Below, piece by piece: positions 30,025 to 35,345 of a DNA stretch of 40,463 nt (the stretch's first letter is position 1; every line of letters starts with the position of its first letter). A program made the translations under genes and the position numbers. Location of the stretch: contig CACHJT010000009.1 in the NCBI GenBank assembly GCA_902580215.1, positions 1 to 40,463 on the forward strand, in the 5' to 3' direction. The notes under the pieces are model-generated. The model did no database searches. It had not been told where the DNA came from and was given only the letters and a program-made list of their open reading frames with translations. This DNA is from an uncultured Candidatus Actinomarina sp. (GTDB lineage: Bacteria > Actinomycetota > Acidimicrobiia > Actinomarinales > Actinomarinaceae).

Positions 30025-30849
30025 TTAAACCTTAATTTCTCTACCTTTTATAATCCGTCTCCTAATTGCAGCTGAAATTGTATCTACTATTAGGACCATT
30101 AATATAGTCACAACTAAAACTGTGCCAGCACGTGGAAAATCTCTAAATCTTAATTGATTAATAAGTTCTGCACCAACCCCACCAGCACCAACTACACCTA
30201 AAACAGCTGAAGCTCTTAAATTAATCTCAAATCTGTACAGCCAGTAAGAAGTAATTGTGGGCATTACTTGAGGTACAACACCAAATAACAGCTCACTTAA
30301 TTTAGATCCACCAGATGATTTTATCGACTCTAAAGGACCCTCGTCTATTCCCTCTATCACTTCAGATGAGAGTTTTCCTAAGGTACCTATTGAATGTATA
30401 CCTACTGCAAGGGTACCTGTTAAAGGTCCTAAACCAGTTATAGGTAAAAACACAAAAGCAAGAATTAATTCTGGAAATGCCCTGATAATATTTAAAATTT
30501 GTTTAGTAACTCTACTAACCATATTTAACGCAACGTTATTAGCAGCTAAAAATGATACAGGAAAACTAAATATAGCTCCAATTACAGTACCTGCCCATGC
30601 AATGAAAAGCGATTCACCTACCTTTGGTACTATTCTACTAAAGGCCTCTTCTGATAAATCTAAAGGAAACATTGCAGATATTAATATCCATACTTTACTC
30701 GGAGCAGTTAAAAATCTTTCAGGTGTGATTTCAAGTCCAGACGCTGACCATATAGAACCAATTACTATCAGAAATGTAATAATGTATCTTAAAATTTTTT
30801 GATTAAATGGTTGTTTAGGAATTTTCATAATATTTTTCTTCTTAGCCAT
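30025..30849 (-). CDS. phnE: Phosphonate-type ABC transporter permease (PhnE), second copy
   Basis: Inner-membrane permease with about six helices. The EAA-like cytoplasmic loop is GPLESIKSSGGSKLSELLFG followed by VVPQVMP, and the C-terminal RASAVLGVVGAGGVGAELI matches the PhnE signature. It overlaps the first phnE by 25 nt at its start and is the last gene of the phnD-phnC-phnE-phnE operon. Two permeases imply a heterodimeric channel. Its 274-residue length is normal. Confidence 0.9.
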   Translation of the reverse strand: MAKKKNIMKIPKQPFNQKILRYIITFLIVIGSIWSASGLEITPERFLTAPSKVWILISAMFPLDLSEEAFSRIVPKVGESLFIAWAGTVIGAIFSFPVSFLAANNVALNMVSRVTKQILNIIRAFPELILAFVFLPITGLGPLTGTLAVGIHSIGTLGKLSSEVIEGIDEGPLESIKSSGGSKLSELLFGVVPQVMPTITSYWLYRFEINLRASAVLGVVGAGGVGAELINQLRFRDFPRAGTVLVVTILMVLIVDTISAAIRRRIIKGREIKV

Positions 30850-31616
30850 ACACTAAATTGTTCAATAGCTATTACCGCAATAAGTATGAGCACAATAATA
30901 GGGGTGATTCTATCAAATCTTAAAAATATACGCTGTGTCTCAATTATCCTACCAACTCCACCTGCTCCAACCAATCCCAAAATAACTGATGCCCTGATGC
31001 AAAGCTCGAAAATATATAAAAAGTAAGCAGTAAAGTTTGGGAGTATCTGAGGAAGTGCCGAACTGAAAACTGCTTGATTGTGTTTAGCGCCACTTGCTTT
31101 TGCTGCTTCTAATGGTCCTAGATCGATACTATCTATGGTTTCTGACAATAACTTACCCATAATTGCCATAGAAAACATAATCAGAGCCAACACACCAGCA
31201 AATGGACCTATTCCCACAGCTACGGTGAACAACATAGCCCAAAATAAGTCTGGTATTGTTCTAATAAAATTTAGAAATGATTTATATATGTAATAAGAAA
31301 CAGTTGTTTGGTTTGTTGCTCTTGAGGCATAGAATGATAATGGTAACGCAATAAAGCAACCAAGTATACTTGCTAATATTGCAATCTGAATTGTTTCTAA
31401 TAATGCCTGCGAAGCGTTTTCAATTGCCCACTCCCATTTAGGGTTGAATAGTGGATCTGTAACAATTCTCCTATTTTCGAGATTTCTTTTAAAATCTTCT
31501 AAATTAAATCCAATTTGTAAAAAAGAGTAGATACTAAAAAAAATTGCAAAAGGGTAACCTAAAACAGTTAATAAAGAAGGTAGCGGCTTCTTAGGTACTT
31601 TAATCTTCTTCTCCAA
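30825..31616 (-). CDS. phnE: Phosphonate-type ABC transporter permease (PhnE), first copy
   Basis: Permease homologous to the neighbouring phnE, with an EAA-like loop GPLEAAKASGAKHNQAVFSS and ALPQILP, and the C-terminal RASVILGLVGAGGVGRII. It has six predicted helices in 263 residues. Its start overlaps phnC by 17 nt and its end overlaps the second phnE by 25 nt, a tightly coupled operon. The related imported ion could be a phosphonate or phosphite; the sequence does not decide. Confidence 0.9.
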   Translation of the reverse strand: MEKKIKVPKKPLPSLLTVLGYPFAIFFSIYSFLQIGFNLEDFKRNLENRRIVTDPLFNPKWEWAIENASQALLETIQIAILASILGCFIALPLSFYASRATNQTTVSYYIYKSFLNFIRTIPDLFWAMLFTVAVGIGPFAGVLALIMFSMAIMGKLLSETIDSIDLGPLEAAKASGAKHNQAVFSSALPQILPNFTAYFLYIFELCIRASVILGLVGAGGVGRIIETQRIFLRFDRITPIIVLILIAVIAIEQFSVWLRRKIL

Positions 31617-32370
31617 GTAGATCAGAAGATTTTATTGCTCTACCATATATATTTTCAAAATCTTGGTCGCTAACGTCATCAACTTTTCCATCGTAAACAA
31701 GTTCTCCATCTTTTAGACCTATTAGTCTTTCGCCAAATTCCTTGGCTAAATCTAAGAAATGTAAATTTACAATAGTTGTTATTCCAAGTTCTTGATTTAT
31801 TTGTTTTAAATATTTCATTACTACCCTAGAAGTAATTGGGTCTAAAGAAGCAACTGGTTCGTCAGCGAGCATTACTTTTGGCTTTTGTGCGAGAGCTCTC
31901 GCTATACCCACTCGTTGTTGCTGACCGCCTGATAGGTTGGACCCTCTAACATATGCTTTTTCTAAAATTTCTACTTTATTTAATGATTCAAAAGCAATTT
32001 CCTTATCTTCTTTTGGCCAAAGGCCAAAAACTGATCTAAGAGTTGATACTTGACTCAATCTACCCGTAAGTACATTTTTTAATACTGAAGATCTGTTGAC
32101 TAAGTTAAATGTTTGAAAAATCATACCAATATCGGATCTAATTTCTTTAAGTTCTTTTTTGGAGGCTTTAGTTACATTTTTTGAATTGACTATAACTTCA
32201 CCTTCAGTAGGTTTAACTAAATTATTTATAGTTCTAAGTAATGTAGATTTACCTGCACCAGACATGCCAACAATTATTACAAAATCTCCTTCTGTTATGT
32301 CAAGGGAGACATTGTTTAATGCTTTTACACCACCAGGGTAGGTAACACTTATATTTTTAAACTCAATCAT
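31600..32370 (-). CDS. phnC: Phosphonate-type ABC transporter ATPase (PhnC)
   Basis: Cytoplasmic ATPase of the importer. Walker A is GMSGAGKST, the Q-loop is GMIFQTFNLV, the signature is LSGGQQQR, Walker B is VMLADEPVASLDP, and the H-loop follows at VNLHFLD. The order and spacing of LTGRLSQVSTLRSVFGLWPK are typical of PhnC rather than generic ABC ATPases. At 256 residues it is normal. A terminator-like hairpin lies just upstream, between phnD and this gene, so it is probably translated from the read-through portion of transcripts. Confidence 0.93.
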   Translation of the reverse strand: MIEFKNISVTYPGGVKALNNVSLDITEGDFVIIVGMSGAGKSTLLRTINNLVKPTEGEVIVNSKNVTKASKKELKEIRSDIGMIFQTFNLVNRSSVLKNVLTGRLSQVSTLRSVFGLWPKEDKEIAFESLNKVEILEKAYVRGSNLSGGQQQRVGIARALAQKPKVMLADEPVASLDPITSRVVMKYLKQINQELGITTIVNLHFLDLAKEFGERLIGLKDGELVYDGKVDDVSDQDFENIYGRAIKSSDLLGEED

Positions 32371-32382
32371 AAAATTTGAAAA

Positions 32383-32416
32383 AAAAACTAGGGTGACTTA
32401 TGCCACCCTAGTTTTT
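32383..32416 (-). terminator. Intrinsic terminator/attenuator between phnD and phnC
   Basis: Perfect 13-bp inverted repeat (arms 32383-32395 and 32404-32416, 9 GC-containing core pairs around ACTAGGGTG) with an 8-nt loop, followed on the minus strand by a run of T that starts within the arm. The placement directly after phnD would let most transcripts stop there, giving more binding protein than transporter. It is nearly symmetrical and could also act on the other strand. Confidence 0.8.
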
Positions 32417-32422
32417 ATTTAA

Positions 32423-33559
32423 TTATTCGTCGTATAGTCCAAATTCTTCTGCAGCTTGTTTTACTACATCAAATTCAGAGTTTACAGCTGGAACGATATC
32501 AGTCCATCCATAAATCTCATCCATTACTGCTGCACCTTCATCAGTAGATATATAGTCACTTAATATTTGATATATTTGCGCTTTTATATCTTCAGGTAAG
32601 TCTGTTCTAACAGCTACAACATCATTTGGTATTTCAGCTGTTATGCCCATAGCAATAACTTTTTCACCAACATCAGGATTGGTTTTTCTCAATGTTCTTC
32701 GTGCGTCATCATAACTGACACCAAACTTGGCATCTCCATTATAAAGACCAGCTATAACACCATCATGAGATCCAGCAAAAACTTGGGTTATATCACTTGT
32801 GTAATCAATACCTGCATTTTTCAACTGTAAGGATGGATAGAGATATCCAGAAGTCGAACCTTCCTCAACAAAAAGTACTTCTTGCCCAACGAGCACACTT
32901 AAATCAGCTTCACATGCATATCCCGGACTAACAGTTACTTCTACTCCATCAATTGTTCTGACTTCAGGAATCATACCATCATCGCCAAAGCCCCAACCTA
33001 CTTGTAAAGCTTTTACATCTGGTGGCATTGTTGCTGAACCAGTAATTAATGTAGGAACACCATCAATATTTTCAAATGCCCCAATTACAGGTGCTGATTT
33101 ACAAACACTTGAATCAGTTGTCCAAAAAGTTCCATGATATGAACCAGATCCATATCTAACAACTTTTGCAATAGCCTCGAGCCTGGTTGGAAAAGCATTG
33201 AGAGCATTAACATATCCTAAAGTGTTGAATGCACCAATATCTGCTTGACCAGATCCCATAGCTACAAGTAATCCTGAATAGTCACTTGTTACGAAACCTT
33301 CTACTTCAATACCTAAACCATCACTCAATACTTTCATTAAAGGTTGAATATTGTCTAATAGTTCAGCTTGTTCTGCGCTTGGAACGAAACCAAAAGTAAT
33401 TTTATCTAATGTCTCAGCTACAGTTGTAGCTGGTGCATCTAGCGTTTCGGCTTCTTCCACAGCAACAGGTTCTTCTACTGTCTCTTCATCAGCACTACCC
33501 CCACAGGCAGCAAGAACTAATGATAAAACAAGTAAAATAAGAAATGATTTTTTAGTCAT
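32423..33559 (-). CDS. phnD: Phosphonate-type ABC transporter substrate-binding lipoprotein (PhnD)
   Basis: Exported lipoprotein that captures the substrate. The signal peptide ends in lipobox LAAC with Cys19, followed by an acidic linker (about 20-45) and a PhnD-like domain: ITFGFVPSAEQAELLDNIQP, GQADIGAFNTLGYV, and VEEGSTSGYLYPSLQLKNAG. Compared with classical PhnD there is an extra stretch of about 65 residues (roughly 155-225) between the DS and STSG motifs, bounded by two Cys. It is the first gene of phnDCEE, with GGAGGA as ribosome-binding site. No C-P lyase genes are in view. Phosphonate, phosphite or a related ester are possible ligands. Confidence 0.9.
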   Translation of the reverse strand: MTKKSFLILLVLSLVLAACGGSADEETVEEPVAVEEAETLDAPATTVAETLDKITFGFVPSAEQAELLDNIQPLMKVLSDGLGIEVEGFVTSDYSGLLVAMGSGQADIGAFNTLGYVNALNAFPTRLEAIAKVVRYGSGSYHGTFWTTDSSVCKSAPVIGAFENIDGVPTLITGSATMPPDVKALQVGWGFGDDGMIPEVRTIDGVEVTVSPGYACEADLSVLVGQEVLFVEEGSTSGYLYPSLQLKNAGIDYTSDITQVFAGSHDGVIAGLYNGDAKFGVSYDDARRTLRKTNPDVGEKVIAMGITAEIPNDVVAVRTDLPEDIKAQIYQILSDYISTDEGAAVMDEIYGWTDIVPAVNSEFDVVKQAAEEFGLYDE

Positions 33560-33621: not shown

Positions 33622-34104
33622 TTAAAAATTTGTTAAATCAATTTCACCATAAGTACGAGAAATTATTTCACCATTGGTGTCAAGCACAATTGAAATTGGT
33701 TGACCAACAATCTTAAAGTAGTCTCTTAACTCAGGTGTAGAAAATCCTATTGTGAGGTCTCCATTAAGATTCTCATTCACCCATTCCATTGTTGGTTCGT
33801 ACTGACTGTGTGCTAAAGCGATAACATCATAATCATCAGAAATGTTAGCTAATTCTTTTTCTACGACAGGTAACTCCCGCCTACATACGCCTCAGTAGTC
33901 AGCCCAGAAAATGATGATTGTTTTTTTATCTGTAAAATTCTCAGTGACAACAGCTTCAGATGTATCTATATACTTAAAAGTACTTTCTGTAATAGAACCT
34001 GTAGATTCTGACACAGCTTCTAGTATTTCACTTTCCAACTCTCCACTGGCTCCATACGAACAGGAAATAAAAAATATGATAAATATTGGCAAGAAACGTT
34101 TCAT
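33622..34104 (-). CDS. Candidate selenoprotein: TlpA/thioredoxin-like lipoprotein with in-frame TGA (UxxC)
   Basis: Reads as 160 residues if the TGA at 33892-33894 is decoded. Residues 1-15 are a lipoprotein-type signal (Cys15 in FISC), then an acidic linker. The thioredoxin core starts with KTIIIFWADY; residue 71 (TGA) is exactly at the first redox Cys, giving UGVC with Cys74, followed by RRELP as in TlpA proteins. The rest is intact: strand VIALAHS, cis-Pro136 in VGQPISIVLDTNGEI, then TAA. No other stop or frameshift occurs. A Cys would be TGT/TGC, so a single point mutation is the main alternative. A hairpin after the TGA fits a bacterial SECIS. A TATCAT box ends 6 nt before its ATG. It is predicted to reduce disulfides or peroxides outside the membrane. 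Confidence 0.75.
33861..33898 (-). promoter_or_regulatory. Candidate bacterial SECIS element
   Basis: On the minus strand, downstream of the TGA, GGCGGG (33881-33876) pairs with CCTGTC (33870-33865) in 6 bp, including two G-U, closing a 5-nt loop AGTTA. The loop begins 17 nt after the TGA and has G at its second position and a GU, as in the usual description of bacterial SECIS elements. CTAC just before the TGA can pair with GTAG just after the stem (4 bp). Confidence 0.5.
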
Positions 34105-34151: not shown

Positions 34152-35345
34152 GTGAATATTGCACTTTTAAGCGTTGGAACTGAGATTTTACTTGGCGATA
34201 CTATTAATACTAACCTTGCATCACTTGGGCAAGCTTTATATAACAATGGATTTATGCTCTCAACTGAAAAAACTGTACCTGATGATAAAAAATTAATACA
34301 AGATGCTGTAAATGAACTACTTGAGAACAATGATGTCATTATTACATGTGGAGGAATCGGGCCTACAGAAGATGATTTTACAAAAGAAGTCATTTCTGAA
34401 ATGTTTGACTTAAAACTTGTTGTTGACGAAGTTCATCTGAACTGGATGAAGTCAAGGTGGGAGAGTAGAGGTATGACTATGCCTGCAACAAATGTAAAAC
34501 AAGCAGAAATCCCAGCAGGTGCAACTAAATTAAACAATACAAACGGAACCTCACCAGGGATATATATTGAATATAAAAGTAAACATGTTTTCATACTTCC
34601 TGGTCCACCGAGAGAGTTCATACCGCTAGTAACAGATGAGTTAGTACCATTTTTAAAAGATAACTTTACAAAAATAGAAAAAGATTATGAATTTATTTTA
34701 TTTTTTAACGAAGCAGAGTCTGCTTTGGCAGAAAAAATTGACAGGTTTAAACCTGAAGGTTTAGATATCGCTTATTTAGCGAGCAAAGGAATCATTAAAT
34801 TACGAATCGATAAAAATTCGGTCAGTGAAGATGCGTTAAAAGATTTTAAAAATCAAATAAAAGAATCATTAAGTCACAATGTATTAAGTTATGAAAATAT
34901 CCCTGCTTCAAAAGTTTTATTAAGAGAACTAAAAGCTAAGAATTATACAATATCACTAGTAGAGAGCATTACAGGTGGATCATTTTCTAAAGAGCTTGTG
35001 TCTCATCCAGGTGCAAGCGAAGCATTAATTGCATCTAATGTTTTGTATTCTATGGATGCAAAAAAAGAACTATTGAATGTAGAACCTAATGAAGACTGGG
35101 CCCTACTCACTGAAGAGTTAGCAGTTGCATCTATGAAAAAATATAATTCTTCTGTCGGTTTAGCAGTATTAGGTGAAGCAGGCCCCGTTCCATCAAGTAA
35201 ATATAAAATAGGTGAAATATTTATATCCATCTGTATCAATGGTGAAATATCTAATTTCACACACAATTTACGCGGTAATAGGGAAGATATAATAAATAGA
35301 GCAGTAAATAACTGTATATGGGATCTATTAAATTTAATTAAATAG
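34152..35345 (+). CDS. cinA: CinA family protein (nicotinamide-nucleotide amidase type)
   Basis: Competence/damage-inducible family protein. The N-terminal MoCF-like domain shows LLSVGTEILLGDTINTN, VIITCGGIGPTEDD and HVFILPGPPREF. The C-terminal amidase-like domain (about 250-397) shows VESITGGSFSKELVSHPGAS, with the Ser kept but the usual Cys of ESCTGG replaced by Ile, and NLRGNREDIINRAV. At 397 residues it is a normal two-domain CinA. It precedes recA, as in many Actinobacteria, but with its own GTG start and -10 box. NMN amidase activity is likely but not certain. Confidence 0.9.
   Translation: MNIALLSVGTEILLGDTINTNLASLGQALYNNGFMLSTEKTVPDDKKLIQDAVNELLENNDVIITCGGIGPTEDDFTKEVISEMFDLKLVVDEVHLNWMKSRWESRGMTMPATNVKQAEIPAGATKLNNTNGTSPGIYIEYKSKHVFILPGPPREFIPLVTDELVPFLKDNFTKIEKDYEFILFFNEAESALAEKIDRFKPEGLDIAYLASKGIIKLRIDKNSVSEDALKDFKNQIKESLSHNVLSYENIPASKVLLRELKAKNYTISLVESITGGSFSKELVSHPGASEALIASNVLYSMDAKKELLNVEPNEDWALLTEELAVASMKKYNSSVGLAVLGEAGPVPSSKYKIGEIFISICINGEISNFTHNLRGNREDIINRAVNNCIWDLLNLIK

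What the first reader, a model, noticed from the sequence alone, without database searches (positions are those of the whole stretch)
33622..34104. Probable selenocysteine-containing TlpA-like lipoprotein (UGVC active site)
Seen: an in-frame TGA interrupts a thioredoxin-like gene exactly at the first redox Cys (FWADY-TGA-GVCRRELP). The next 89 codons are open and encode the remaining fold with cis-Pro (VGQPISIVLD). A random nonsense mutation would be unlikely to hit this codon and leave the rest unscathed. TGA is a stop in this genome (for example truB, the SbtA-like gene and the LysM gene), so reassignment does not explain it. Established: Cys-to-Sec replacement in UxxC thioredoxin-fold proteins is a known selenoprotein pattern, also in marine bacteria. 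Inference: this host uses Sec in an exported thiol-redox lipoprotein, which I have not seen described for this lineage.
Basis: partly seen in the sequence, partly recalled or inferred. Interest (0 to 1): 0.92.

Follow-up and report, generated by a model that had tools for sequence, protein, structure and literature searches.

The report
Selenocysteine thioredoxin-like lipoprotein in marine Actinomarina
A tiny-genomed ocean bacterium (Candidatus Actinomarina) reads a "stop" codon as the rare amino acid selenocysteine at the active site of a cell-surface thioredoxin-like protein; the kind of protein is known, but we found no description of selenium use for this abundant lineage.

Summary
On the minus strand, 34104-33622, a 160-codon thioredoxin-fold gene carries an in-frame TGA (33894-33892) exactly where the first active-site Cys is expected (FWADY-U-GVCRRELP), with 89 open codons after it. 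The selenoprotein reading is strongly supported by every test available here. The genome has selC, a selA-selB operon, and a selD that itself contains a Sec codon. All 35 orthologues found among 42 genomes of the genus have exactly one in-frame TGA; in the 30 read in full, and in 35 named records (an overlapping set), it is the active-site codon. The named records identify Candidatus Actinomarina, class Acidimicrobiia. A six-pair SECIS hairpin starts 10 nt after the UGA and pairs in 216/216 cells across 36 sequences, with compensatory changes. Codons after TGA are under purifying selection. Fifteen other Acidimicrobiia genomes have TGA at the site, all with tRNA-Sec. One relative (G063) with no detectable tRNA-Sec, selD or SelB wing domain has a 63%-identical orthologue with Cys and no hairpin. 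Inferred function: an exported TlpA/ResA-like thiol-disulfide oxidoreductase. UxxC selenoproteins of this type are known from marine metagenomes: a new member of a known kind. No paper in the searched library reports Sec in Actinomarina.

The parts
33622..34104 (-). Selenocysteine-containing TlpA/ResA-like lipoprotein gene (160 residues, Sec71, TAA stop)
   Evidence: Translation with TGA=U; Pfam Redoxin/Thioredoxin above cut-off; AlphaFold2 model matches ResA
33892..33894 (-). In-frame UGA = Sec71, first residue of the UxxC active site
   Evidence: Exactly one in-frame TGA in 35/35 genus orthologues; at this codon in all 30 read and in 35/35 named Actinomarina-type loci
33865..33881 (-). bSECIS-type hairpin, 6-bp stem and 5-nt loop AGUUA, 16 nt between UGA and apical loop
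   Evidence: 216/216 cells paired over 36 distinct sequences, 3 of 6 pairs with double changes; codon use at these positions is atypical for the genome
33883..33885 (-). Cys74, second active-site (resolving) residue of UGVC
   Evidence: Invariant in alignments A2 and A3
33697..33699 (-). Pro136, the cis-Pro position of the thioredoxin fold (GQP)
   Evidence: Invariant in A3; cis-Pro role by analogy to the fold
34060..34062 (-). Cys15, probable lipidation site after the hydrophobic N-terminus
   Evidence: Invariant Cys in A3; class relatives have classical lipobox motifs
32423..33559 (-). PhnD-like substrate-binding protein, next gene downstream on the same strand (62-nt gap)
   Evidence: TIGR01098 above cut-off; adjacent in most, not all, Actinomarina genomes
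34152..35345 (+). CinA-like gene, divergent neighbour, used as synteny anchor
   Evidence: Pfam CinA and MoCF_biosynth; adjacent in every orthologous locus read

Best explanation
The gene encodes a selenoprotein. UGA codon 71 is decoded as selenocysteine by SelB with Sec-tRNA-Sec, directed by a SECIS hairpin just downstream inside the coding sequence. The product is an exported, probably lipid-anchored, TlpA/ResA-like thioredoxin-fold protein whose Sec71-Cys74 pair replaces the usual CxxC. It most likely works as an envelope thiol-disulfide oxidoreductase: Sec71 attacks an oxidised substrate, Cys74 resolves the mixed selenosulfide, and a membrane electron donor re-reduces it. Shown here by sequence: conserved UGA, covarying hairpin, complete Sec machinery, purifying selection after UGA, natural Cys replacement in a relative without detectable Sec machinery, ResA-like fold. 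Inferred: Sec insertion in the cell, lipidation, reductase direction, partner and substrate. The confidence given is for the selenoprotein reading; for the reductase direction it is about 0.65.
For: selC 75.4 bits, cut-off 47, anticodon TCA; selA above NCBIfam cut-off, overlapping selB with a C-terminal SelB-wing_3 domain; selD with its own TGA in a GUACK motif. One in-frame TGA in 35/35 genus orthologues, at the same codon in all 30 read and in 35/35 named records. Hairpin: 100% of cells paired, covariation score above all 500 shuffles and all slid controls. Rare codons fixed in the stem: CGG is 0.9% of Arg codons in the window but 13/13 at Arg76; GAG 22% but 29/29 at Glu77; GTC 9% but 16/16; CTC 5% but 13/13. 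dN/dS downstream of TGA 0.03-0.13 for most pairs. In 57 other class genomes, 15/15 with TGA at the site have tRNA-Sec, against 19/42 of the rest, Fisher P = 8e-5. G063 shows no tRNA-Sec, selD or SelB wing domain, and its 63%-identical orthologue has Cys and no hairpin. Fold: pLDDT 81, best PDB match ResA, E 4.4e-9.
Against: No protein-level proof of Sec. The hairpin of this one sequence is not more stable than shuffles (-7.6 kcal/mol, z -0.68), so the RNA case rests on covariation and codon use. SelB is divergent and below the NCBIfam equivalog cut-off (190.7 vs 242.25), though it has the SECIS-binding wing domain. The Fisher test ignores shared ancestry. The clear Cys orthologue is a single case, from another family of the class.
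Confidence: 0.96

Rival explanations
1. A decayed gene: TGA is a random nonsense mutation, giving a truncated, useless protein.
For: TGA is a genuine stop elsewhere in the window.
Against: Same codon in all orthologues read across the genus and 15 class genomes; low dN/dS after the TGA; no other stop or frameshift in the genes read.
Confidence: 0.01
2. TGA is read through as another amino acid (for example Trp or Cys by a near-cognate or altered tRNA), or the code is reassigned.
For: The reading frame stays open after TGA, and an active-site Cys would also make sense here.
Against: TGA ends 3 of 38 ORFs in the window; tRNA-Sec, selA, selB and selD are present; TGA is tied to tRNA-Sec across the class and to a covarying hairpin.
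Confidence: 0.02
3. It is a selenoprotein as above, but works as a peroxidase-like or oxidising enzyme rather than as a reductase.
For: Redoxin and AhpC-TSA profiles also match; Sec often serves in peroxide reduction (established knowledge); the same genome has an AhpD-like Sec gene.
Against: Best fold matches are ResA, DsbE and TlpA reductases; the UxxC plus RxELP motif is that of TlpA/ResA.
Confidence: 0.25

Closest known systems
UxxC 'thiol-disulfide isomerase-like' selenoproteins of the Sargasso Sea (PMC1088965) and the COG0526 Trx-like 1 family of GOS (PMC2398784); listed as cd02966 in PMC13188914
   Same: Thioredoxin-fold, Sec in UxxC, bacterial SECIS downstream, marine bacterioplankton
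   Different: Those were unassigned metagenome reads; here host, synteny, Sec machinery and a class-wide SECIS are established. The published sequences could not be compared directly (not held).
ResA / TlpA / DsbE(CcmG) / StoA thiol-disulfide oxidoreductases
   Same: Fold, position of the redox pair, RxELP after it, extracytoplasmic location
   Different: Sec replaces the first Cys; below NCBIfam cut-offs of the named subfamilies
NF041054 ResA-like WAxxUGC selenoprotein family
   Same: ResA-like domain with Sec
   Different: 21 bits against a cut-off of 300; motif UxxC rather than UGC

Membership tests
Bacterial selenoprotein | In-frame UGA conserved at a catalytic Cys position of homologues | tested here: met
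   One in-frame TGA in 35/35 genus orthologues; at this codon in 30/30 read and 35/35 named records; Cys in a 63%-identical class relative of a Sec orthologue
Bacterial selenoprotein | bSECIS: stem 4-16 bp, loop 3-9 nt, G in first two loop positions, 16-37 nt from UGA to loop, MFE at most -7.5 (rules quoted from PMC13188914) | tested here: met
   Stem 6, loop AGUUA (G second, then U), 16 nt, -7.6 kcal/mol; 16 nt and -7.6 are at the edge of the rules
Bacterial selenoprotein | selA, selB, selC, selD in the genome | tested here: met
   SelB below its NCBIfam cut-off but with SelB-wing_3
Bacterial selenoprotein | Sec demonstrated in the protein | not testable with these tools
   Needs mass spectrometry or 75Se labelling
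TlpA/ResA-like thiol-disulfide oxidoreductase (cd02966 type) | Thioredoxin fold with UxxC/CxxC at the start of the first active-site helix and cis-Pro opposite | tested here: met
   AlphaFold2 model, Foldseek to ResA with TM-score 0.73 by target; invariant C74 and P136
TlpA/ResA-like thiol-disulfide oxidoreductase (cd02966 type) | Membrane anchor or lipoprotein signal | tested here: inconclusive
   Hydrophobic N-terminus with invariant Cys15; lipobox weak in some Actinomarina sequences, clear in class relatives
TlpA/ResA-like thiol-disulfide oxidoreductase (cd02966 type) | Reductase activity | not testable with these tools
   Needs biochemistry
NF041054 WAxxUGC ResA-like family | Score above curated cut-off (300 bits) | tested here: not met
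   21.1 bits
Sargasso Sea thiol-disulfide isomerase-like selenoprotein family | Sequence similarity to the published members | not tested
   Published sequences are not in the held text; only the UxxC motif and fold class can be matched

The most novel reading that the evidence does not exclude
The selenoprotein is functionally coupled to the PhnD/C/E-type importer encoded just downstream, for example as a surface reductase serving uptake of a selenium or phosphorus oxyanion. The linkage is common in the genus, and the binding protein has a weak match to a putative selenate-binding family (57 bits, cut-off 250). Against it: three genomes lack PhnD next to the gene, and no PhnD match was found near the gene in eight class relatives.
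Probability: 0.06. Interest if true: 0.65.

Novelty: new member of a known kind. Interest (0 to 1): 0.42.

Why it matters
Actinomarina is a widespread marine lineage with genomes of about 1 Mb, where every gene is under pressure to be lost. Finding the whole selenocysteine apparatus kept across the genus, for at least three selenoproteins (this one, SelD and an AhpD-like enzyme), points to a selenium requirement in a streamlined marine bacterium. It also assigns a host to a type of selenoprotein known from marine reads, and shows a gene that standard annotation would truncate or miss. The class-wide hairpin and the natural Sec-to-Cys swap make the Sec reading directly testable in a laboratory host.

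Tried and rejected
Pseudogene and code reassignment: rejected (see rivals). Gene loss or Sec-to-Cys change within the genus: of the 7 genus genomes without the gene, 5 lack the CinA neighbour too and in 2 the contig ends inside CinA, so absence looks like missing assembly. Single-sequence folding gave no significant stability. PhnDCE as partner: linkage not strict. Other TGA-joined ORFs in the fetched stretches were not convincing. An earlier regex for selD found nothing because the motif is GUACK, not the one assumed.

Full report
Observation. The gene lies on the minus strand at 34104-33622. Translating it with TGA as U gives one uninterrupted 160-residue protein, U at position 71, in the context FWADY-U-GVCRRELP. 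The window contains no other TGA that joins two open stretches of 40 or more codons outside long ORFs. TGA is a real stop in this genome: 3 of 38 ORFs in the window end with it.

Lineage. Close relatives in named records are Candidatus Actinomarina / OCS155 / Actinomarinales, class Acidimicrobiia. The window's genome is 996 kb in 23 contigs, 87% complete.

Sec machinery. tRNA-Sec scores 75.4 bits against a cut-off of 47 and has the TCA anticodon. selA (381 bits, cut-off 268) overlaps selB by four bases; SelB is divergent (191 bits, cut-off 242) but keeps the C-terminal SelB-wing_3 domain. selD has an in-frame TGA in GUACK. tRNA-Sec and selD are each found in 40 of 42 genomes of the genus, most of which are incomplete.

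Conservation. Of 42 genus genomes, 35 have an orthologue, each with exactly one in-frame TGA; in the 30 read in full it is the active-site codon. A separate search of named genomes gave 35 of 35 with TGA at that codon; the two sets overlap. Of the 7 genomes without the gene, 5 lack CinA too and in 2 the contig ends inside it. dN/dS after the TGA is 0.03-0.13 for most pairs with this sequence, values at high divergence being unreliable.

SECIS. A hairpin with a 6-bp stem and loop AGUUR starts 10 nt after the UGA, leaving 16 nt to the apical loop. Within the genus all 150 cells pair and a C-G pair flips to G-C in about half the sequences. With class relatives added, 216 of 216 cells pair in 36 distinct sequences, three of six pairs show double changes, and the covariation score exceeds every shuffle and every slid control. 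The stem fixes codons that are rare in this AT-rich genome, such as CGG for Arg (0.9% in the window, 13/13 here). It satisfies the bSECIS rules as quoted in PMC13188914, at the edge for spacing and energy; folding energy of the single sequence alone is unremarkable. The selD gene has its own covarying hairpin with a GU(U/C/A) loop, 33 nt downstream.

Class-wide test. Fifteen Acidimicrobiia genomes outside the genus have TGA at the active site of a TlpA-like protein, many in FWAEW-U-xxCRRELP with the same hairpin; all 15 have tRNA-Sec, against 19 of the other 42 (P = 8e-5, not corrected for ancestry). Some of the 15 (for example L109, L110, L113, L115) belong to more distant TlpA-like families with other hairpins. 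Genome G063 shows no tRNA-Sec, no selD above cut-off and no SelB wing domain; its orthologue is 63% identical to the Sec protein of G042, from the same family, but has Cys, and the hairpin is gone.

Function. Pfam Redoxin and Thioredoxin match above cut-off. The AlphaFold2 model (pLDDT 81) matches ResA, DsbE, Etrx and TlpA structures best. Cys15, Cys74 and Pro136 are invariant. The genome has separate Cys-type relatives, including a DsbE-like protein next to a CcmH-like gene and a CGYC protein next to a DsbB-like gene, as read by eye from the translations, so this protein is probably not the cytochrome-c DsbE. In two class relatives the Sec gene lies within a few kb of ccmF-type genes. The most likely role is an envelope thiol-disulfide reductase; donor and substrate are unknown.

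Known context. UxxC thiol-disulfide isomerase-like selenoproteins were reported from the Sargasso Sea (PMC1088965) and GOS (PMC2398784) and are listed in a 2026 review (PMC13188914). No paper in the library joins selenocysteine with Actinomarina or Actinomarinales; five mention selenium and Actinomarina, and the one most on topic, on the sister order UBA5794, mentions selenium only as the end-product of selenate and selenite reduction. The verdict is a real selenoprotein, new member of a known kind, with lineage-level interest.

Noticed in passing
L190 (G000:C3:90950-91507, minus): A further selenoprotein gene in the same genome: AhpD/CMD-like peroxidase-related protein with CEYU (CxxU) and a nearby GGUC-type hairpin; exactly one in-frame TGA in all 32 genus genomes where it was found.
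   Followed up: partly
L078 (G000:C2:81706-82623): SelD is itself a selenoprotein (GUACK) across the genus, and Cys in several class relatives.
   Followed up: yes
window 30025-33559: PhnD-PhnC-PhnE-PhnE type ABC importer directly downstream; linkage common in the genus but missing in three genomes.
   Followed up: partly
L109, L110, L113: More distant Sec-containing TlpA-like proteins (WFWAP-[FY]-U-xxCxxEAPS) in other Acidimicrobiia; their hairpin differs, a CCUC-GGUC-GAGG stem-loop.
   Followed up: no
L115: A WSSWUGC protein, probably of the known WAxxUGC ResA-like selenoprotein type.
   Followed up: no
L138 (PAEE01000009.1): Contig labelled Euryarchaeota archaeon MED870 carries the Actinomarina gene order recA-cinA-tlpA-phnD; probably a mislabelled or misbinned MAG contig.
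   Followed up: no
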